Assembly: GCF_900168065.1 (NCBI RefSeq)
Contig: NZ_FUZZ01000001.1
Coordinates: forward strand, 1,736,001 to 1,800,000
Direction: 5' to 3'
DNA from: Chitinophaga ginsengisegetis
Lineage (GTDB): Bacteria > Bacteroidota > Bacteroidia > Chitinophagales > Chitinophagaceae
Length of the DNA: 64,000 bases
Position 1 is the stretch's first letter, and each line of letters starts with the position of its first letter. The position numbers were made by a program, and so were the translations under genes. Of this stretch, positions 36,067-47,292 are shown piece after piece. A model generated the notes under the pieces. The model was given only the letters and a program-made list of their open reading frames with translations, ran no database searches and had not been told where the DNA came from.

Positions 36067-36106
36067 ATGCCCTTCCCCAAAACAGAAACCGGTAACCCCG
36101 CCCCTC

Positions 36107-36177
36107 AAAAAGTGACTTTTTGCAATTTTTTAATTGAAAAGTATCAATTAAACCGAATCGATCTTCCGGTAACTTTG
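36107..36177 (+). promoter_or_regulatory. Crp/Fnr-type class II promoter of methyltransferase A
   Basis: A 20-bp perfect palindrome TAATTGA-N6-TCAATTA lies at 36131-36150 (centre 36140.5). The -7 box TAACTTTG is at 36170-36177, giving an inferred transcription start at 36182 and a palindrome centre at exactly -41.5. The -33 position reads TTA, not TTG, as expected for an activator-dependent promoter. The 52 bp from 36107 to 36158 match the methyltransferase C promoter (41055-41106, opposite strand) at 49 of 52 positions without gaps. The message would have a leader of about 88 bases. Confidence 0.75.
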
Positions 36178-36269
36178 CACCATTAATAACGCTCCCGGAA
36201 GGCATTTTTCCGGTTAACCTTTCTTTGCTAACCAGCAACCTGTTCTTTCTAAAATAGTCAGCAATAAAC

Positions 36270-36866
36270 ATGGAAAATATTATATCCGGGCCAACGTGGT
36301 ATGTGAGTGATGCAGCATTTGACTGGCTGTATCCTGAGAGAATACAGCAATTATCCAAGCGGCACTGGACACCTATGGAGGTAGCGAGAAAATCGGCGAA
36401 ATTCCTGGCTTCCGGAACCGGGAAAAGAATACTTGATATAGGAAGTGGTGTGGGTAAGTTTTGTCTTATCGGAGCACATCAATTCCCGGAAGCTACATTT
36501 TATGGTGTAGAGCAGCGAAAAGAATTATATCATTTTGCGCAGGCAGCCAGGGAACGGACCGCATCAGGGAATGTTGAATTTATCAACAGTAATTTTACAC
36601 AGGTAGATTTTAACGACTTTGATCACTTTTACTTTTATAATGCGTTCTTTGAAAACCTGGTTGATGAGGGACAAATAGACCAGGATACCGAATATTCCAC
36701 AAGCCTGTATAACTATTATACACGTTATATGTTCAAAGGACTGGACAACAAACCCAGTGGTACCAGGTTAGTGACGTTTCATAGCCTGGAAGACGAAATT
36801 CCTCCCAGTTACCAGCTGGTGGATGCTACAGTAGATTTTCTCTTAAAAATGTGGATAAAAAGATAA
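36270..36866 (+). CDS. Class I SAM-dependent methyltransferase, copy A
   Basis: A 198-residue Rossmann-fold methyltransferase. The SAM-binding motif I is ILDIGSGVGKF (about 54-64), motif II is FYGVEQRKEL and motif IV region is DHFYFYNAFFENL, where an Asn-Ala-Phe-Phe replaces the NPPY of DNA/protein amide methylases. RHWTP near residue 31 is conserved in all three copies in this cluster. Copy C at 40 kb has the same length and is very similar along its full length; copy B is more distant. It is followed 49 bp later by a DUF1275 gene. The substrate cannot be told from sequence; a small molecule, protein or lipid are all possible. Confidence 0.9.
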   Translation: MENIISGPTWYVSDAAFDWLYPERIQQLSKRHWTPMEVARKSAKFLASGTGKRILDIGSGVGKFCLIGAHQFPEATFYGVEQRKELYHFAQAARERTASGNVEFINSNFTQVDFNDFDHFYFYNAFFENLVDEGQIDQDTEYSTSLYNYYTRYMFKGLDNKPSGTRLVTFHSLEDEIPPSYQLVDATVDFLLKMWIKR

Positions 36867-36915
36867 CCGGAAGGCGATAAGGTTACGCAGGGTGTACCTG
36901 TGAAAATATTAACAG

Positions 36916-37674
36916 ATGCTGCGTCATATAGGAAGAAAAAGAAACTACCGGCATAATTTACGGCTCGCCGTACTTTTATGCTTTACTGCCGGAGTAGTAA
37001 ATGCGGCCGGTTTCTTTGCTTTTGCGGTACTAACCACCAATGTAACCGGCCATGCGGCATTACTGGCGCATAAGTTGGCAACGGGCGACTTCAGGTCTGC
37101 ACGAATGGTTGGTTTATGGCTGGTACTTTTTCTTGCCGGAGCATTTTTCTCAAGCTTCTGTACCGGCAAAGCAGGACAGCACAAAAGATTTGGTTATGCA
37201 ATACCTATCGTATGCGAGATCATTATCCTTGTGTTGGTAGGTAGTTTTGGATATACCTTTGATCAATCTATTATCAAAACAGAATACTTTGCCGGCAGCC
37301 TGTTATTTGCAATGGGAATGCAAAACGCCCTGGTATCCACAATTTCCGGGTATGTGGTTAGAACTACACACCTGACCGGGATGTTTACGGATCTTGGTAT
37401 TGACCTGTACACATGGATATCCACTTCTGGCAAAAGCGTTGCAACGGTCAGGAAAAAAATTATCCTGCGGCTCGTTATCATCACATTCTTCCTGACAGGT
37501 GGAATTGTGGGGGGATATATGTTCCTGAAATTTAAGTACGTTACCTTTTATTTACCGGCGGCGGTACTGGTTATTGCGATGTTCTACGACGCTTTCCGGG
37601 TGAGGTTATCCAAAATGGTACACCGGATCAGGATTCAGGATAAAAAAATAGTGACGCAACCAGCTGATAATTGA
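36916..37674 (+). CDS. YoaK/DUF1275 family membrane protein
   Basis: A 252-residue inner-membrane protein with about six predicted helices: about 14-35 (LAVLLCFTAGVVNAAGFFAF), 55-80, 90-108, 120-140, 180-202 and 208-228. The opening AGVVNAAGFFAFAVLTTNVTGH and MQNALVSTISGYVVRTTHLTGMFTDLG are the hallmarks of the DUF1275 (YoaK) family. Its function is unknown; a transporter-like role has been proposed for the fold. It probably shares the methyltransferase A transcript and therefore the Crp-type control. It converges with the Crp A gene, 10 bp away. Confidence 0.9.
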   Translation: MLRHIGRKRNYRHNLRLAVLLCFTAGVVNAAGFFAFAVLTTNVTGHAALLAHKLATGDFRSARMVGLWLVLFLAGAFFSSFCTGKAGQHKRFGYAIPIVCEIIILVLVGSFGYTFDQSIIKTEYFAGSLLFAMGMQNALVSTISGYVVRTTHLTGMFTDLGIDLYTWISTSGKSVATVRKKIILRLVIITFFLTGGIVGGYMFLKFKYVTFYLPAAVLVIAMFYDAFRVRLSKMVHRIRIQDKKIVTQPADN

Positions 37675-37684
37675 TTGGCTGCAT

Positions 37685-38392
37685 CTATTTATAGTTGGCT
37701 ATCTTAATCAACTTACCAACATCTTTTATCATAATTTTCCTTCCTTTTGTTTCCAGTATATTATCTTCTTTGAATTCAGTTAATACTCTTACGATATTTT
37801 CCCTGGCAGTACCCACAAGGCTGGCCAGGTCTTCACGGCTTATGTTTATTTCTATCGACATTCCTTCTACATAATTCTCCTTATACTTTTCCCGGATAAT
37901 GATTAATTGCAGTGCCAGTCTTTCTCTTACGGTCTTTTGGGCGAACATGGTCAGGCTGTTTGCCAATACCGCAAATTCATGGCTTAAAGTTTTGAGTAGC
38001 CTGTTGTTCAGCAAAGGAGAATAGTCGAGCGCCTTGAGGAAATCTTCTTTGGGAATGAATGCGATGGTGCTCTCTTCTATAACGGCTGCAGAATCCGGAT
38101 ACCGGTCTTCCGATAAGATGGCATGATACCCGATCAACTGCCCTGTATTAGCCAGGTAAATGATCTGCTCTTTACCGTCATTGTCAACTTTATATTTCTT
38201 GACCTTTCCTTTGGTGATATAAAATATACCGGATGGATATGACCCTTCCCGGAAAAGTACTTCATTCTTCTTGTATATCTGCTCGCTTTTATGGGCTATC
38301 AGCATCTCATAAACATCCGGCGGCAGATCCGCAAGGATGGATTCACTTTTGAAATCCCATTTATCTATTGGAAATATACCCTTGATACTCAT
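37685..38392 (-). CDS. Crp/Fnr family transcriptional regulator, copy A
   Basis: A 235-residue regulator. Residues 20-140 form a cyclic-nucleotide-binding-type beta roll (EVLFREGSYPSGIFYITKGKVKKY, IIYLANTGQLIGYHAIL, STIAFIPKEDFLKAL). The C-terminal helix-turn-helix (about 175-225) reads INISREDLASLVGTARENIVRVLTEF; Arg-Glu-x-x-x-Arg matches the recognition pattern of Crp. There is no cysteine anywhere, so it cannot hold an Fnr-type iron-sulphur cluster. A TAATTTTG -7 box at 38399-38406 (minus) puts the inferred start 2 bases before the ATG. It is the paralogue of the regulator at 41.1 kb and diverges from methyltransferase B. Confidence 0.93.
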   Translation of the reverse strand: MSIKGIFPIDKWDFKSESILADLPPDVYEMLIAHKSEQIYKKNEVLFREGSYPSGIFYITKGKVKKYKVDNDGKEQIIYLANTGQLIGYHAILSEDRYPDSAAVIEESTIAFIPKEDFLKALDYSPLLNNRLLKTLSHEFAVLANSLTMFAQKTVRERLALQLIIIREKYKENYVEGMSIEINISREDLASLVGTARENIVRVLTEFKEDNILETKGRKIMIKDVGKLIKIANYK

Positions 38393-38417
38393 CGCATACA
38401 AAATTAACATTTTTAAA

Positions 38418-38484
38418 GTTGATAAAACTCACTTTTCAGGGTGATAAATTTCACCGCAGCGCTATTGAATGATAGATACCTTTG
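38418..38484. promoter_or_regulatory. Divergent control region of Crp A and methyltransferase B
   Basis: A 5-6-5 palindrome GGTGA-TAAATT-TCACC lies at 38440-38455 (centre 38447.5). The plus-strand -7 box TACCTTTG is at 38477-38484, giving an inferred start at 38489, again exactly 41.5 bp from the palindrome centre, and the -33 position reads CGC. A second, weaker site GTTGA-N6-TCACT is at 38418-38433, 22 bp (two helical turns) away. It is centred at about -31.5 for the Crp A promoter, where binding would block RNA polymerase, so autorepression is possible. Confidence 0.7.
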
Positions 38485-38556
38485 GGGATATGACTAAAGC
38501 AGGGAGATAAGATTATCTGCAAGTCAATATTTCAACTGTAAACCGTAGTATAATAC

Positions 38557-39171
38557 ATGTCATTTGCATCATCAACTTCATTACGTGGGCATTCAGATAA
38601 GTGGTTTGAATCAGACGCCAACTTTCATCATCTTTATCCCCTTTATATACAGGCGCTGGCACAAAGGCACTGGACTCCCTTAAGGGTGGTTCAGAAGGCA
38701 TCTAAATTCCTGGCTGCCACACCGGGTGCCAAAATACTGGACATTGGCAGCGGGCCTGGTAAATTTTGCCTGGGAGGCGCCTACTATAACCCGGATGCTT
38801 TCTTTTACGGCATTGAGCAGCGCAGCGACCTGGTACGTTATGCTTTTATTGCGAAAGAAATGGTGGGGCTTAACAATGTTACCTGCATGTATGGTAATTT
38901 AACAGAGTTGGATTTCAGCCAGTACGATCACTTTTACTTCTTCAATTCCTTTTATGAAAATCTTCCCGGTACCTATAAAATAGACGATAAACTTACTTAT
39001 TCAAGATCTTTGTATAATCAATATAACAGGTACCTGTATACCCAGCTTGAAAGAATGCCGGCGGGTACAAGGCTGGCGACCTACCACGGCGCCGAAGCGG
39101 AAGCTCCGCATGGATATCATATTGTGGGCACGGATATAGATCATCTGCTAAAATTCTGGATTAAGTTATAA
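38557..39171 (+). CDS. Class I SAM-dependent methyltransferase, copy B
   Basis: A 204-residue methyltransferase with the same plan as copies A and C: QRHWTPLRVVQKASKFLA, motif I ILDIGSGPGKFCLGGA (about 60-75), FYGIEQRSDL, and YDHFYFFNSFYENL. It is clearly the most diverged of the three, especially at the N-terminus and over the last 60 residues. It forms its own short transcription unit, diverging from Crp A and ending in a hairpin at 39213. Its separate evolution with its own version of the palindrome (GGTGA instead of ATTGA arms) suggests a different substrate or regulator preference (inference). Confidence 0.88.
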   Translation: MSFASSTSLRGHSDKWFESDANFHHLYPLYIQALAQRHWTPLRVVQKASKFLAATPGAKILDIGSGPGKFCLGGAYYNPDAFFYGIEQRSDLVRYAFIAKEMVGLNNVTCMYGNLTELDFSQYDHFYFFNSFYENLPGTYKIDDKLTYSRSLYNQYNRYLYTQLERMPAGTRLATYHGAEAEAPHGYHIVGTDIDHLLKFWIKL

Positions 39172-39212
39172 TTGACCGGGGAGCGAAAAGATATTTCACT
39201 GGTATAAAATAT

Positions 39213-39247
39213 CTGAACGCCGTGATAAAATGTATCACAGCGCTCAG
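39213..39247. terminator. Long hairpin between convergent genes
   Basis: A 15-bp stem with two mismatches, CTGAaCGCcGTGATA pairing with TATCACaGCGcTCAG around AAATG, lies in the 133 bp between convergent methyltransferase B and the DUF983 gene. A smaller GATATTT/AAATATC stem precedes it. There is no T-run on either side, so it may work as a transcript end stabiliser or a Rho-type end, or the inner GTGATA/TATCAC could bind a protein. Confidence 0.5.
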
Positions 39248-39304
39248 ATGATGGTTGGTTAAATGACATGCCCGCTACGGGGAGCATTATTAAACAAGTG
39301 GAAT

Positions 39305-39727
39305 TTAAGACAACACGCTCTCCTTTTGCTTCCGTGTTTCAGCTTCAGGATCATGGCCCACATAGAAGGTCAGGTATAGCGTCCGGGACAATCGCATTAA
39401 TAAGGGCATTGAAAGCGTTAATATAATCCCGTTAGCGATCAGCCAATGAAAGATGCTGTCATCTCTCCAGGTTATACCAAAAATCAGCCAATACCATATT
39501 AAGTTAAACACGGAGAACATCACCGCCAGCACATAGCTAACGTATCCGGTTCCATACCAGAATCCTATTTCCAGTTCTGTCCGCTGGCCACACACAGGGC
39601 AGTTACCATGCATATCCAGGACTCTTTTTAGTTGGTAAGGATTATCATTTTTAAACAATTTCCCTTTTCTGCAACGGGGACATTTATTCTTTAAAATGCC
39701 GGCAATAAAATTGGATTTCTTCATCAC
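39305..39727 (-). CDS. DUF983 family membrane protein with zinc ribbon
   Basis: A 140-residue protein. The N-terminus carries two Cys pairs, CPRCRKGKLF (about 15-24) and CPVCGQ (about 43-48), forming a zinc ribbon of the kind found in DUF983 proteins. Two membrane segments follow (about 60-82 YVSYVLAVMFSVFNLIWYW and about 95-115). DUF983 genes are often near cytochrome oxidase or respiratory genes in other bacteria, but the function is unknown. It overlaps the preceding small gene by 4 bp (ATGA) and closes the GcvH-like/methyltransferase C operon. Confidence 0.88.
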   Translation of the reverse strand: MMKKSNFIAGILKNKCPRCRKGKLFKNDNPYQLKRVLDMHGNCPVCGQRTELEIGFWYGTGYVSYVLAVMFSVFNLIWYWLIFGITWRDDSIFHWLIANGIILTLSMPLLMRLSRTLYLTFYVGHDPEAETRKQKESVLS

Positions 39728-40008
39728 AATATTTTCTTCTGGTCCGGAGTGACCTGCTTAACGGATGTATCTCTGATGCAGATAAGTGCAAAACGGTAGC
39801 AACTCCATTGTTCACTGCTACATTCAAGCGGCGGAATTCCTTCCAATGCTGTCTCTAATTTGTTGAGGCACCGTTGTACTATAAATCCATTCTTCTTCTT
39901 CTCCCTCATGTTATTGACAGATACCTGGATAACATCTTTCACTTCTGCATTATTTTTTGCCACCCTGATTTGTTCAATTATTGTGGCTACATATTTATCT
40001 ATTGTCAT
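39724..40008 (-). CDS. Small orphan protein in the methyltransferase C operon
   Basis: A 94-residue, mostly helical cytoplasmic protein (MTIDKYVATIIEQIRVAKNN, VIQVSVNNMREKKKNGF, CLNKLETALEGIPP) with three Cys. No family was recognised. It starts 19 bp after methyltransferase C and overlaps the DUF983 start by 4 bp, so it is surely in the same operon. It could be a partner or regulator of the methyltransferase, but nothing in the sequence shows that. Confidence 0.75.
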   Translation of the reverse strand: MTIDKYVATIIEQIRVAKNNAEVKDVIQVSVNNMREKKKNGFIVQRCLNKLETALEGIPPLECSSEQWSCYRFALICIRDTSVKQVTPDQKKIL

Positions 40009-40027
40009 GTTCCGGCGTATTATTTTT

Positions 40028-40624
40028 TTATTTCTTCATCCACATTTTCAGTAAAAAATCTTCAGAGGCATCTATCAGCCGGTACCCCGGAGGCACTTCA
40101 TCTTCCAGGCTGTGAAAGGTTACCAGCCTGGTTCCTGCAGGTTTATTATCCAGTTCCCTGTACAAATAGCGGGAATAGTATTGATAGAGACTGGTGGAAT
40201 AATCAATCTGCTGATCTATTCTATTCCTGGTGTCTAAATTTTCAAAGAAGGCATTGTAAAAGTAGAAGTGATCATAATCTGCCAGGTTAACCTGTGTGAA
40301 GTTACCATTGATAAATTCTGAATTAATTGTTTTCGTGTATTCTTTTGCAGCCAGTGCATAATGGTGTAATTCACTTCTTTGTTCCACGCCATAAAAAATT
40401 GATCCGGGATAGTAATGAGCGCCGATAAGCGCAAATTTTCCAACACCACTTCCTATATCGAGGATCTTTCCATTTCCTTCAGATGCCAGGAAAGCAGCGG
40501 CGCTTTTGGCGATTCCCACGGGAGTCCAATGCCGTTTCGACATTTGCTGAATCCTTTCCGGGAACAGCCAGTCGAAAGATGCATCTGTCAGATACCAGGC
40601 CGGTTTCATCAGCGTGTTTTCCAT
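40028..40624 (-). CDS. Class I SAM-dependent methyltransferase, copy C
   Basis: A 198-residue methyltransferase, the close paralogue of copy A. SAM motif ILDIGSGVGKFALIGAH (about 54-70), FYGVEQRSELHHYA and YDHFYFYNAFFENL are almost the same as in A, and long runs such as DNKPAGTRLVTFHSLEDEVPP differ from A at only one or two residues. Its start shares one base with the stop of the GcvH-like gene (TAATG), indicating translational coupling. The near-identity of both coding sequence and promoter to copy A points to a segmental duplication of a promoter-methyltransferase unit. Confidence 0.9.
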   Translation of the reverse strand: MENTLMKPAWYLTDASFDWLFPERIQQMSKRHWTPVGIAKSAAAFLASEGNGKILDIGSGVGKFALIGAHYYPGSIFYGVEQRSELHHYALAAKEYTKTINSEFINGNFTQVNLADYDHFYFYNAFFENLDTRNRIDQQIDYSTSLYQYYSRYLYRELDNKPAGTRLVTFHSLEDEVPPGYRLIDASEDFLLKMWMKK

Positions 40625-41031
40625 TACTGATTAGCAACTTTGGAGCGTATTAATTTCTGATAGTTTTCTGGAGAAAGAAGTGACTCCTGGTTGTAGAATT
40701 TCAGCGGAGTAACGAAAAAAATCCAGCCGTTGTCCTGCGGACTTTCCAATACAAGGTTTAGATTTCCTGAAAGTTTTTGATTCCTGCCAAGATATTTGCA
40801 GCCGACCGGTGCATGTACAGGAATAATCTGATCGGCGGTGTGGATTTCAGCAATAATGGCTCCTTTCTCAATAATGCCTTTGGGGTTATGCCATATTATA
40901 TTAACTATATTCTTAATTCCTTTCAATCTATGTGCAGAAACACCTACAAAACCAACACTACCATTTAAATCAATCCACTCATGATTGTCTGTGAAATTAA
41001 TCCTCGGACGGGAAATAGTTGATATTTTCAT
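40624..41031 (-). CDS. GcvH-like lipoyl-domain protein lacking the lipoyl lysine
   Basis: A 135-residue protein with the glycine-cleavage H fold: FTDNHEWIDLNGSVGFVGVSAHRLKGI matches the GcvH N-terminus, NGWIFFVTP matches the conserved C-terminal GWI motif, and LLSPENYQKLI matches its final helix. In the hairpin that should hold the lipoylated lysine (ESVKAAS in true GcvH) it reads IHTADQII; an ungapped alignment puts Asp67 where the lysine belongs. It therefore cannot be lipoylated in the usual way. The start at 41031 is chosen because a TACCTTTG box lies five bases before it; a longer reading would include the promoter. It leads the operon with methyltransferase C, the small orphan and DUF983. 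Confidence 0.82.
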   Translation of the reverse strand: MKISTISRPRINFTDNHEWIDLNGSVGFVGVSAHRLKGIKNIVNIIWHNPKGIIEKGAIIAEIHTADQIIPVHAPVGCKYLGRNQKLSGNLNLVLESPQDNGWIFFVTPLKFYNQESLLSPENYQKLIRSKVANQ

Positions 41032-41035
41032 ATTG

Positions 41036-41106
41036 CAAAGGTACCTTTGATGGTATTCGGTTTCATTGATACTTTTCAATTAAAAAACTGCAAAAAATCA
41101 CTTTTT
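41036..41106 (-). promoter_or_regulatory. Crp/Fnr-type class II promoter of the GcvH-like/methyltransferase C operon
   Basis: On the minus strand a palindrome ATTGA-N6-TCAAT (41065-41080, centre 41072.5) is followed by the -7 box TACCTTTG (41043 down to 41036) and, five bases on, by the ATG at 41031. If transcription starts at the ATG, the palindrome centre is at exactly -41.5 and the message has no leader. The -33 position reads TGA, not TTG. Bases 41055-41106 match the methyltransferase A promoter at 49 of 52 positions. The same site lies 53.5 bp before the Crp B start on the other strand. Confidence 0.75.
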
Positions 41107-41125: not shown

Positions 41126-41839
41126 ATGAGTTTAGAAGGTCTGTTTCCCATCTATAAATGGAATTTTAAATCTCAATCCATCCTGAGTAATCTGCCTGAA
41201 GATGAATATGCAGCGCTTCATACCCATATGCAGGAACAGCGTTATGGGAAGGGGGAAATAATATTCAGACAGGGAGCTGTTGCTTCCGGTATTTTCTTTA
41301 TAAAAAAAGGGAAGGTTAAAAAGTACCAGGTTGACCAGAATGGCCGGGAGCAGATTATATACGTTGCCAATGCAGGCGAATTAATCGGGTATCATGCTAT
41401 TTTAGCGGATGAGCGTTATCCGGACTCCGCTGCTACCATAGAGGAAAGTATCATAGCCTTCATTCCCAAAGAAGATTTTATGGCTATTATGGAAAGGTCC
41501 AGCGTGTTGCCACGCAGATTGCTCAAAATCCTCAGTCATGAATTCACAGTACTGGCAAACAGTATTTCTGTATTTGCGCAGCGCTCTGTTAAAGAAAGAC
41601 TGGCGATTACATTAATTGTATTGCGCGAAAAGTTTAAAGAAGAAACAGCAGCCGGGGAAGATATTATGATCAATATTTCCCGTAGCGACCTTGCCAATAT
41701 GGTAGGTACCGGTAAAGAGAATATTGTCAGGTTTTTGACTGAATTTAAGTCCGCCGGCATTTTAACCTCACACAGCAAAAAAATCTGCATCAAAGATATC
41801 AGGCAACTTATAAAGGTATCCGGATGCGGTAATGTGTAA
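41126..41839 (+). CDS. Crp/Fnr family transcriptional regulator, copy B
   Basis: A 237-residue paralogue of Crp A; MSLEGLFPIYKWNFKSQSIL mirrors the other copy's start. The sensor roll (EIIFRQGAVASGIFFIKKGKVKKY) and the helix-turn-helix INISRSDLANMVGTGKENIVRFLTEF are conserved, with Lys instead of Arg at the first recognition-helix contact. Only one cysteine is present, near the C-terminus, so no Fnr-type cluster is possible. It diverges from the GcvH-like operon across 94 bp that contain the shared palindrome. No clear -7 box was found for its own promoter. Confidence 0.93.
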   Translation: MSLEGLFPIYKWNFKSQSILSNLPEDEYAALHTHMQEQRYGKGEIIFRQGAVASGIFFIKKGKVKKYQVDQNGREQIIYVANAGELIGYHAILADERYPDSAATIEESIIAFIPKEDFMAIMERSSVLPRRLLKILSHEFTVLANSISVFAQRSVKERLAITLIVLREKFKEETAAGEDIMINISRSDLANMVGTGKENIVRFLTEFKSAGILTSHSKKICIKDIRQLIKVSGCGNV

Positions 41840-45206: not shown

Positions 45207-46220
45207 TTAGCCTCCATTTGCCTGAATGTTTGCAGTACGCCCCTCCTCGGGCCAGGCGAAACCCACTCCTCCATGTAGATATCTTTCCGTTTGCAGATAA
45301 AAAGTATTTACTCCCTGGATCCCGACTCCTGCATAATAAAAGAATTTATCAACGTGTTCCTGATATTCACCAAACTCACGATACTCTGTGTGTAAAGTAA
45401 GTAATTCCGCCATTTCCTCGTTGTGTATGCGGAAGGCCTCTTTGCAGGCATCCTCCAGCGAAAGATTATATTGTTGCTGCAATACAAAGACCAGGTTAAA
45501 AACTTCTGTTCCCTTCGCCATTTCTTTGGGCAGGGAATGAATGTCGTTTTGCCACGCAATAACCAGGGTCATATGAGATATGATCTTTTGAACGACAATG
45601 TGCTCAAAGATATGTTCTGGCAGCACAAGCCCCGATTCAATTTCACCAAAGATCAGATACGGGCGCATAAGAACGGAATACTCACGAATGGTTTTGAAAA
45701 GAGTAAGCGACGGTGGGCGCTGGGCTATTTTATAAGGATACTCCAATTCAATCCCATATCTGACGGATTGATAGAAATAGTAAATAAAGCGTTCCACCCA
45801 TATTTCAGGCATCAAAGCACGGAATTCATCCCTGATCAATGCCATATGTTGATAGATTGCGTTTTCTTCCGGCCTTGGTTGATCGCCCTTGAGAATAGCT
45901 GTACAACGATCCCGTAGCTGTTGGATTTCCTCAAGAGACGAATTTTCCACCTGATCGTCGAAAGCCACATATTGGAGCATGAACCTATTGCAGGGAATAC
46001 TTTGCTCATAGGTTAAGTCCGGCCACATACGCGCAGTGCAGATATGCAGCTTCATTCTCTTGTATTTTTCCCGTTGTTCTTCAGTCAAAAAAGTGTAGTC
46101 ATTATCAATCCAGCCATCCATATCTTTCCCCATCTGTTCTGCATGTGGACTGATAAGGTCCGGCCAGGGGTAATAGCCATGTGGCAGGTAATCTTTTGAA
46201 TTAAACTCTTCTGGTCTCAT
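45207..46220 (-). CDS. Class I terpene synthase, copy 1
   Basis: A 337-residue bacterial-type terpene cyclase. The metal motif is DDQVE (88-92), the second metal triad is ND225-226 in NDIHSLPKE (Asn225, Ser229, Glu233), the diphosphate-sensor Arg is at about 179 (TIREYS) and a C-terminal Arg-Tyr pair (TERYLHGG) is present. All four are needed for diphosphate ionisation, so the enzyme is probably active and makes a cyclic terpene from geranyl, farnesyl or geranylgeranyl diphosphate. Which chain length cannot be told. The start at 46220 drops a 22-residue extension with no family similarity. The second synthase lies 73 bp upstream. Confidence 0.93.
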   Translation of the reverse strand: MRPEEFNSKDYLPHGYYPWPDLISPHAEQMGKDMDGWIDNDYTFLTEEQREKYKRMKLHICTARMWPDLTYEQSIPCNRFMLQYVAFDDQVENSSLEEIQQLRDRCTAILKGDQPRPEENAIYQHMALIRDEFRALMPEIWVERFIYYFYQSVRYGIELEYPYKIAQRPPSLTLFKTIREYSVLMRPYLIFGEIESGLVLPEHIFEHIVVQKIISHMTLVIAWQNDIHSLPKEMAKGTEVFNLVFVLQQQYNLSLEDACKEAFRIHNEEMAELLTLHTEYREFGEYQEHVDKFFYYAGVGIQGVNTFYLQTERYLHGGVGFAWPEEGRTANIQANGG

Positions 46221-46293
46221 CTTGTTTGAAGTTTGAGTTTTGTAGATTGTAAAATGTATAACGGTAACAGGTTTATTCCATTTCAATATCTAC

Positions 46294-47292
46294 TTACACC
46301 TGGTTGAATTTCTCTCTTAGCTCCGCAGCATTGGGGAAAGCAGTTCCATTGTACCGGTCCAGCTTAGTAGATACATTTTTCCAGCCACTGAGCACCATGC
46401 TCATATAGTGCACCCAGTTAACCACGGCATCCTGCCATATCCCAAAGTCGGGTAAGGAAGCCTGCAAGGTGACAAATTCTTTCAGGTCTTCATTATGCAG
46501 ACGCAGGTCTTCGAGGCACGCTTCTTCCAGGGAGATTCCGTACTCATGCTGGATCACCTTTACAATGTTATAATAAATACTGCCGGTTGCTTCGTCTTTA
46601 TTCACCGATTGCACCTCGTTAAAGTAGGTTACCAGGTGGCAGGCGAGTGCCTGCAAGCGCCGGATCACCGGATGCTGGTGTATTTCGGGTGGTAAGATTA
46701 TTTCTGTTTCGACTTCTGTTAATTGCAGGAAGGGATAGAGACAAATGGAATCTTCCCGCAGGGCAATACATTCTGCCACAGTGGGGAAGGTCTTATTCCT
46801 TTTGTACGTAAGCTCCATTTTCAGACCGGCAAAATACCGGCTGATCATTTCCGAAAAACGAATGATCGATTCCTGCGGGATAAACTGCAATAGTTCCTGA
46901 CGTAACGATTCGAGCATATTACCCAGAGGTATTTCTGCTTCAGCAGCTCCTATCTCACCGTTCAGTATAGCCACTGTTCTATCGTGTACATACCCGATAT
47001 CCTCAGGAGTCCCTTCTTCATACAGATCGTCGTTGTACAAGGTCCAGAGCATGAGCCTGCATATGGGTTTCAGTCTTTCAAACGAAGCTGTAGGGAACCA
47101 ATGAGAGGCGATGTGGGCCGTTTTAGTTTTCTTGTACTTTTTCCGGAGGTCCGGATTTTGCTCATACAGCCATAAGTATTCCCCGTCTATCCATTGCGTT
47201 TCTGTAATTTCCTGCAACTGGTCCGCATAGGGGTTTTTAAGGGCCGGGAACGGATAATTGAATTTAGTTCGAAGCAGTTCAAGAGTGTTCAT
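46294..47292 (-). CDS. Class I terpene synthase, copy 2
   Basis: A 332-residue paralogous terpene cyclase with motifs at the same positions as copy 1: DDLYE (88-92), Arg179 and the triad Asn225, Ser229, Asp233 (NEVQSVNKDE). Asp in place of Glu at the last position is an unusual but tolerated change, and the residue after Asn225 is Glu instead of Asp. LDRYNG supplies the C-terminal Arg-Tyr. Sequence similarity to copy 1 is moderate, so the two probably make different products. It is the first gene of the pair and its 5' region holds a string of hairpins. Confidence 0.92.
   Translation of the reverse strand: MNTLELLRTKFNYPFPALKNPYADQLQEITETQWIDGEYLWLYEQNPDLRKKYKKTKTAHIASHWFPTASFERLKPICRLMLWTLYNDDLYEEGTPEDIGYVHDRTVAILNGEIGAAEAEIPLGNMLESLRQELLQFIPQESIIRFSEMISRYFAGLKMELTYKRNKTFPTVAECIALREDSICLYPFLQLTEVETEIILPPEIHQHPVIRRLQALACHLVTYFNEVQSVNKDEATGSIYYNIVKVIQHEYGISLEEACLEDLRLHNEDLKEFVTLQASLPDFGIWQDAVVNWVHYMSMVLSGWKNVSTKLDRYNGTAFPNAAELREKFNQV

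What the first reader, a model, noticed from the sequence alone, without database searches (positions are those of the whole stretch)
36107..41106. Three methyltransferase promoters each carry a Crp-type palindrome at exactly -41.5
Seen: 5-6-5 palindromes centred at 36140.5, 38447.5 and 41072.5. TAnnTTTG boxes give inferred starts (last G plus 5) of 36182, 38489 and 41031. All three distances are 41.5 bp. All three promoters lack the TTG at -33, while unregulated promoters in the same window (tRNA-Leu, J-domain, helicase) have it. Known: -41.5 is the standard class II site of Crp/Fnr activators. Two paralogous Crp/Fnr genes lie within the same 6 kb. Inference: the window holds a self-contained regulon in which Crp A and/or B activate three methyltransferase operons, with DUF1275, GcvH-like, orphan and DUF983 genes carried along.
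Basis: partly seen in the sequence, partly recalled or inferred. Interest (0 to 1): 0.85.

Follow-up and report, generated by a model that had tools for sequence, protein, structure and literature searches.

The report
Crp-pair regulon for methyltransferase operons
In a likely Chitinophaga genome, three methyltransferase operons carry the same paired DNA site at a fixed distance from their predicted promoters; two Crp-type regulators encoded beside them are predicted to bind these sites and likely switch the operons on, and the same arrangement recurs in many related bacteria.

Summary
The three 5-6-5 palindromes lie exactly 41.5 bp from the starts inferred from TAnnTTTG boxes. Sites 1 and 3 share about 55 near-identical bp, so they count as two independent cases. 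A profile built from 25 other loci, with no window sequence, ranks the three window promoters as the top three of 30 hits in the 7.9-Mb genome (E 1e-9, 7e-4, 0.003; next 0.07). Over two families and further Bacteroidia, 107 of 140 distinct upstream regions of such crp genes carry the tandem operator. All 86 full TAnnTTTG boxes 20-80 bp downstream lie at 40.5, 41.5 or 42.5 (1, 69, 16). The Crp recognition-helix residue covaries with the operator: Arg with GTGA (49 of 52), other residues (1 of 55), but the independent events are few. This points to CrpA for MT2 and CrpB for MT1 and GcvH-MT3. A SulP transporter is a common further operon member. Activation, effector and methyltransferase substrate remain untested.

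The parts
36112..36125 (+). operator site I of MT1 promoter, GTGA-CTTTTT-GCAA, centre 36118.5 (-63.5)
   Evidence: profile R1 match 36106-36148, E 2.2e-5 in window
36134..36147 (+). operator site II of MT1 promoter, TTGA-AAAGTA-TCAA, centre 36140.5 (-41.5), CrpB type
36170..36177 (+). -7 box TAACTTTG; inferred start 36182
36270..36866 (+). MT1, class I SAM methyltransferase, 198 aa
   Evidence: Methyltransf_31/25
36916..37674 (+). DUF1275 membrane protein; has its own tandem operator in a relative (L144)
   Evidence: PF06912
37685..38392 (-). crpA, Crp/Fnr regulator, Arg at the CRP R180 position; conserved start is ATGAGTATC at 38392
38399..38406 (-). crpA -7 box TAATTTTG, inferred start 38394; site I lies at -31.5 of it
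38419..38432 (+). operator site I of MT2 promoter, TTGA-TAAAAC-TCAC, centre 38425.5 (-63.5)
   Evidence: profile R1 match 38412-38456, E 8.6e-12 in window
38441..38454 (+). operator site II of MT2 promoter, GTGA-TAAATT-TCAC, centre 38447.5 (-41.5), CrpA type
38477..38484 (+). -7 box TACCTTTG; inferred start 38489
38557..39171 (+). MT2, class I SAM methyltransferase, 204 aa
39305..39727 (-). DUF983-like protein
   Evidence: PF06170 E 4e-4, just below its cut-off; family in 8 of 57 loci
39724..40008 (-). 94-aa orphan; family recurs near MT
   Evidence: cluster 3 in 19 of 57 loci
40028..40624 (-). MT3, class I SAM methyltransferase, 198 aa; structure model mean pLDDT 91
40624..41031 (-). GcvH-like protein without the lipoyl lysine; inferred start coincides with the A of its ATG (predicted leaderless)
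   Evidence: PF01597; Asp at the lipoyl-Lys position
41036..41043 (-). -7 box TACCTTTG; inferred start 41031
41066..41079 (-). operator site II of GcvH-MT3 promoter, TTGA-AAAGTA-TCAA, centre 41072.5 (-41.5), CrpB type
41088..41101 (-). operator site I of GcvH-MT3 promoter, GTGA-TTTTTT-GCAG, centre 41094.5 (-63.5)
   Evidence: profile R1 match 41065-41106, E 5.4e-6 in window
41126..41839 (+). crpB, Crp/Fnr regulator, Lys at the CRP R180 position

Best explanation
The cluster is a small, likely self-contained regulon in which two paralogous Crp/Fnr-type proteins encoded inside it are predicted to bind a conserved tandem operator, centred 63.5 and 41.5 bp before the inferred start sites, and would activate three methyltransferase operons. 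Shown by sequence: the two sites sit 22 bp apart (two helical turns) and, in the 107 of 140 upstream regions that carry them, at a nearly fixed phase to the TAnnTTTG box; in the own genome only these three promoters score as significant; the Crp residue that corresponds to CRP R180 covaries with the operator arm base. Inferred: CrpA (Arg) acts at the GTGA site of MT2, and CrpB (Lys) at the TTGA sites of MT1 and GcvH-MT3. Inferred: bound at -41.5, Crp makes up for the missing -33 contact of the sigma-A polymerase (class II activation), and the -63.5 site serves as a second activator site. Inferred: because site I lies about 31.5 bp before the divergent crpA promoter, it also represses crpA, giving negative feedback. 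The effector is unknown, but unlikely to be cAMP or an Fe-S cluster. The targets (methyltransferase, lysine-less GcvH-like protein, DUF983, DUF1275, and a SulP transporter in relatives) suggest a joint anion-transport and methylation response whose chemistry is not known.
For: Geometry: of 107 operators detected without using the box (at most 27 of the regions are training or window ones), all 86 full boxes 20-80 bp downstream lie at 40.5 (1), 41.5 (69) or 42.5 (16); of the other 21 regions, 15 have a one-mismatch box at 41.5, 1 at 42.5, 5 none. Specificity: R1 (25 non-window loci) gives the three window promoters as hits 1-3 of 30 in the own genome (150 of 5671 first-look candidates were scored); none of the 27 lower hits, read in their own orientation, has a full box at the phase of the three. 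Family scan: of 30 rows at E < 1e-5, 22 are training loci; of the other 8, 7 lie beside crp, MT, SulP or DUF1275 (the exception is L142). Adjacent regulator: 12 of 12 MT loci with no such crp in the fetched stretch lack an in-phase operator within 300 bp, and 10 of these 12 genomes have no crp match at E <= 1e-55 at all. In trans: G055 carries the operator at three separate places (crp-SulP, GcvH-MT, DUF1275), G143 (one crp) at two. Covariation: Arg with at least two G arms 49 of 52; non-Arg 1 of 55; Val with T 11 of 12 arms; Gln with C 49 of 72; Lys with T 25 of 44; thinned to <75% identity, 22 of 25 and 1 of 20. crp-side box 30.5-32.5 bp from site I in 37 of 82.
Against: No transcript 5' end, binding or expression data. 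Covariation is concentrated in few clades: the tree has 6 changes of the Arg state and only 3 well-supported independent pairs (2.4 go the expected way on average, 0 the other way), so a sign test cannot reach 0.05. Site I of CrpB promoters is a poor palindrome (GTGA-N6-GCAG). 33 of 140 crp upstream regions have no operator above the threshold: among them are crpA of many Chitinophaga, both crp genes of L171-L173, and at least five crp that do face MT or GcvH (L067, L072, L077, L197, L200), so the rule has exceptions and autoregulation is not universal. MT1 of L154 and L170 lack the operator although a crp lies nearby. The own genome has at least seven other Crp/Fnr-like genes. Upstream tandem sites can inhibit rather than help class II activation in E. 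coli (recalled).
Confidence: 0.75

Rival explanations
1. The paralogues repress rather than activate: Crp at -41.5 and -63.5 blocks the methyltransferase promoters until an effector releases it.
For: No direction of regulation is measured; site I overlaps the crp promoter region, a usual place for a repressor.
Against: 41.5 is the classical activating position (recalled); none of 67 regulated promoters keeps a TTG 21-23 bases before the box, so they look weak without help; the phase to the box is strict, which repression would not need.
Confidence: 0.12
2. Another Crp/Fnr protein of the genome (for example an Fnr-type oxygen or NO regulator) uses these sites, and the neighbouring crp genes are merely further targets.
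For: At least seven other Crp/Fnr-like genes in the genome; Fnr-like sites occur beside hemA-like and ccoN-like genes in these genomes.
Against: Operator arm bases track the recognition-helix residue of the adjacent Crp, which a distant regulator does not explain; MT copies without adjacent crp lack the site.
Confidence: 0.08
3. The matching distances are inheritance only: one divergent crp-MT module was duplicated, and the spacing has no functional meaning.
For: Promoters 1 and 3 are near-identical over about 55 bp; CrpA/CrpB and the MTs are paralogues.
Against: Over two families flanking DNA has diverged while both sites, the 22-bp step and the 41.5 phase persist; arms change in step with the regulator.
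Confidence: 0.04

Closest known systems
E. coli CRP class II (and class III, two-site) promoters
   Same: nTGA-N6-TCAn site centred at -41.5, second site upstream on the same helical face, missing upstream promoter element (class rules recalled)
   Different: Bacteroidota sigma-A -7 box TAnnTTTG; the regulator lacks the cAMP residues (R82 is Pro in 99 of 105, S83 is Asp in 104 of 105, T127 is Leu in 91 of 105); very small local regulon
FNR / CprK branch of the Crp-Fnr family
   Same: A Val at the CRP-R180 position goes with TTGA, as in FNR (FNR Val recalled; family members here 11 of 12 arms T)
   Different: No alignment column with Cys in over 30% of 105 sequences, so no conserved Fe-S ligands; 6-nt spacer as for CRP, whereas CprK and FNR read 4-nt-spaced palindromes (PMC2610375, passages)
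Porphyromonas gingivalis Crp/Fnr protein of PDB 2gau
   Same: Best match among solved structures by sequence, E 2e-29 (organism recalled)
   Different: Only a distant homologue; regulon not compared
Glycine cleavage H protein (GcvH)
   Same: Family PF01597
   Different: Lipoyl lysine absent in 32 of 33 members aligned

Membership tests
Crp/Fnr superfamily regulator | cNMP-binding domain plus Crp-type HTH | tested here: met
   PF00027 and PF13545 in both proteins
Crp/Fnr superfamily regulator | operator nTGA-N6-TCAn whose first arm base follows the residue at the R180 position | tested here: met
   49 of 52 Arg versus 1 of 55 non-Arg; few independent events
CRP (cAMP receptor) proper | cAMP contact residues R82, S83, T127 | tested here: not met
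   mostly P/D/L in 105 sequences (99, 104, 91)
FNR proper | conserved Fe-S cysteines | tested here: not met
   no column with Cys in over 30% of 105
Class II activated promoter | activator site centred at -41.5 from the start | tested here: met
   from inferred starts only
Class II activated promoter | activator-dependent transcription | not testable with these tools
   needs expression or in vitro transcription
Class II activated promoter | activator surfaces (AR1-AR3) touching RNA polymerase | not tested
   not compared
GcvH of the glycine cleavage system | lipoyl-accepting lysine | tested here: not met
   Asp in the window protein; Lys in 1 of 33
tRNA m2G or DOT1-type methyltransferase | family-specific fold and catalytic motif | tested here: inconclusive

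The most novel reading that the evidence does not exclude
The duplicated regulators have become a wired pair: CrpB reads TTGA at -41.5, while in genomes that also keep the Arg paralogue CrpA the -63.5 site of CrpB promoters has been rebuilt to offer CrpA a GTGA half-site, so that CrpA and CrpB (side by side or as a heterodimer) jointly control MT1 and GcvH-MT3, whereas CrpA alone controls MT2. Support: all 16 two-paralogue Chitinophaga genomes looked at, the window's included, have one Arg and one non-Arg paralogue, and the left arm of site I is G in 28 of 28 of their CrpB-type operators; in 4 genomes with a single, non-Arg paralogue it is G in 0 of 8 (my tally; kinship not corrected).
Probability: 0.2. 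Interest if true: 0.75.

Novelty: new variant of a known kind. Interest (0 to 1): 0.6.

Why it matters
As far as I know, local control by Crp/Fnr proteins is poorly described for Bacteroidota, whose promoters differ from those of E. coli. Here a tandem operator, a defined promoter phase, a natural series of recognition-helix variants with matching operators and a duplicated, apparently diverging regulator pair occur together. That makes class II activation at TAnnTTTG promoters, and the evolution of specificity after duplication, directly testable. It also predicts joint function for a SAM methyltransferase family (1881 proteins found; the names shown among the best 120 are generic), a lysine-less GcvH-like protein, DUF983, DUF1275 and a SulP transporter.

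Tried and rejected
Rejected: three independent palindromes (two promoters are duplicates). Rejected: cAMP-CRP or Fe-S FNR identity. Rejected: operator at every MT copy; the fourth own-genome MT (C9:3281633, L037) and 11 other MT loci without a neighbouring crp show none within 300 bp (operon heads further away were covered only by the profile scan). Weak: the -33 argument (no TTG in 67 regulated promoters against 12 of 140 others). Led nowhere: methyltransferase substrate (Pfam, NCBIfam, PDB sequence and fold searches give only generic class I matches). Literature: in the listings I saw no title or abstract start on this regulon; 54 and 89 listed general specificity papers and 62 promoter papers. 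Only passages of PMC9723704 and PMC2610375 were read. The library is open-access only.

Dropped rows: crp upstream regions with identical first 90 bp were counted once and those under 120 bp skipped (164 ORFs to 140). The null is one mononucleotide shuffle per region. L067 was left out of the training alignment because its site I was degenerate, and L079 as a near-copy of L078 (27 non-window candidates to 25). One row without the helix column was dropped in the first tree. L046 and the remote crps of L039 and L081 were set aside by the 400-bp limit. G092 (partial MT) was not fetched. Outside the CrpB tally: L244, a genome with one crp hit at E <= 1e-75 (Arg type), has one operator with TTGC-type site II and a G left arm; L243, one Lys-type crp, has no operator found.
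Full report
OBSERVATION. The three palindromes, boxes and 41.5-bp distances are exactly as described. Among 57 TAnnTTTG boxes in the window only these three have a perfect 5-6-5 repeat at that offset. In the whole genome (7.93 Mb, window at C9:1736001-1800000) the pattern KTGA-N6-TCAM-N22-TAnnTTTG occurs six times, three of them here, and the reversed control never. The inferred start rule (G+5) agrees with mapped flavobacterial promoters, where the box spans -12 to -5 (PMC9723704, passages read). Promoters 1 and 3 are near-identical for about 55 bp upstream and MT1 and MT3 are 67% identical, so the window contains two independent examples.

44 of 195 genomes of the family hold the MT; 46 loci were fetched from them (G092 left out), and the divergent unit crp <> [GcvH-like]-MT is common there. 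Aligned on the MT-side box, 29 regions (two from the window) give two operators: site II at -41.5 and a better conserved site I at -63.5, consensus AAAATTGATAAAnATCACTTTT. The window has site I at all three promoters: 36118.5, 38425.5, 41094.5.

GENOME-WIDE TEST. A sequence profile of 47 positions from 25 loci, none from the window, puts the three window promoters first, second and third of 30 hits in the own genome (E 1.1e-9, 6.7e-4, 0.0027; fourth 0.07, in which 150 of 5671 first-look candidates were scored). None of the 27 lower hits has a full box in the phase of the three. In 195 family genomes 46 have a match at E <= 0.003. Of the 30 rows below 1e-5, 22 are training loci and match by construction; of the other 8, 7 lie beside crp, MT, SulP or DUF1275 and one (L142) beside none of these. 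Many weaker rows are elsewhere, for example inside an ORF (L148) or near hemA-like and ccoN-like genes (L150, L146). Two genomes show action in trans: G055 has separate operators at crp-SulP, GcvH-MT and DUF1275, and G143, with one crp, at MT and at a SulP gene on another contig.

GEOMETRY IN A LARGER SET. With 79 named loci (Chitinophaga, Mucilaginibacter, Pedobacter, Ferruginibacter, Flavihumibacter and others) and further genomes, 140 distinct crp upstream regions were scored with the four arm bases masked. 107 reach a score of 10 (the highest of one mononucleotide-shuffled copy per region is 5.7). Full boxes between 20 and 80 bp downstream are at 41.5 (69), 42.5 (16) and 40.5 (1) and nowhere else; 15 more regions have a one-mismatch box at 41.5, one at 42.5, and 5 none. 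Of the 33 regions without an operator, at least five face MT or GcvH (L067, L072, L077, L197, L200). A crp-side box lies 30.5-32.5 bp from site I in 37 of 82, elsewhere in 18, and is absent in 27; autorepression is inferred from this.

WHO BINDS WHAT. The residue aligned with CRP R180 covaries with the arm base n of nTGA (107 loci): Arg 139 of 208 arms G; Gln 49 of 72 C; Lys 25 of 44 T; Val 11 of 12 T. As a two-state test, Arg with at least two G arms is 49 of 52, against 1 of 55 for other residues; after thinning to below 75% identity, 22 of 25 and 1 of 20. The Arg-G and Val-T rules match what is recalled for CRP and FNR. Kinship limits this: 6 changes on the tree, 3 well-supported independent pairs, 2.4 on average in the expected direction and 0 against, sign test unable to reach 0.05. 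In the window CrpA has Arg and faces the GTGA site of MT2; CrpB has Lys and faces the TTGA site of GcvH-MT3, and MT1 has that same TTGA site. In other Chitinophaga the MT1 and GcvH operators mostly carry the CrpB-type site II TTGAAAAGTATCAA/G or the variants CTGAAAAGTATCAA/G and TTGCAAAGTATCAA/G, L166 and L179 having others; full boxes are at 41.5 except one at 42.5, and four lack a full box. MT1 of L154 and L170 has no operator.

THE REGULATORS. Both are Crp/Fnr proteins, 61% identical. The cAMP contacts are lost (Pro in 99, Asp in 104 and Leu in 91 of 105 at R82, S83, T127), there is no conserved Cys, and two His (90 and 138) are present in 103 of 105. The effector is unknown. The own genome holds at least seven further Crp/Fnr-like genes.

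THE TARGETS. Clustering of neighbours in 57 loci (47 of them, the window included, chosen because they hold MT) gives MT in 44, crp in 38, a SulP permease with STAS domain in 26 (Pfam), a 93-aa orphan in 19, GcvH-like in 15, DUF983 in 8 and DUF1275 in 5. The GcvH-like protein lacks the lipoyl lysine (32 of 33). The MT model (mean pLDDT 91) fits class I methyltransferases with tied best matches to m2G tRNA enzymes, aKMT and a bacterial DOT1L, so the substrate is open.

SIDE RESULT. In 16 Chitinophaga genomes with both paralogues (one Arg, one non-Arg in each), site I of the CrpB-type operators has a G left arm in 28 of 28; in four genomes with a single non-Arg paralogue (Asp, Lys, Ile, Ile) in 0 of 8 (tally; kinship not corrected; two of the four are close kin). 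One Arg-only genome (L244) has a G arm in one operator with a TTGC-type site II. This suggests that CrpA takes part at CrpB promoters; it is given as the novel case only.

CONCLUSION. The organism is named Chitinophaga only by its relatives (MT3 up to 90% identical to named Chitinophaga).

Noticed in passing
L090 (own genome C7:472253) and L150 (G083): An Fnr-like site lies between divergent ferrochelatase-like and hemA-like genes (names from recall of the protein starts), in two genomes; probably another Crp/Fnr regulator.
   Followed up: partly
L001 (own genome C4:257433) and L002 (C8:478112): Two more KTGA-N6-TCAM sites at the 41.5 phase, each near the start of a minus-strand ORF and not among the tandem-profile hits; possibly class II targets of another Crp/Fnr protein.
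   Followed up: partly
window 40624-41031 and homologues: GcvH-like protein whose lipoyl lysine is Asp; Lys in only 1 of 33 homologues.
   Followed up: yes
window 41029-41043 and 38390-38406: The inferred starts of GcvH-like and crpA fall at or 2 nt before their ATG: predicted leaderless transcripts.
   Followed up: no
L146 (G148 C140): Operator-like site before a gene that looks like ccoN of a cbb3 oxidase (recalled from the sequence), a classical Fnr target.
   Followed up: no
L151 (G050 C14:69263): Operator-like site (E 9e-4) before a carbonic anhydrase-SulP pair (Pro_CA), hinting that the transporter may handle bicarbonate.
   Followed up: partly
L037 (own genome C9:3281633): A fourth MT copy with the small orphan gene but no operator within 300 bp and no neighbouring crp.
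   Followed up: yes
G030 contigs C84, C514, C535, C16, C274: Five partial matches of like score to the operator profile, probably a dispersed repeat.
   Followed up: no
window 45207-47292: Two adjacent ORFs that look like terpene synthases (recalled motif, not searched).
   Followed up: no
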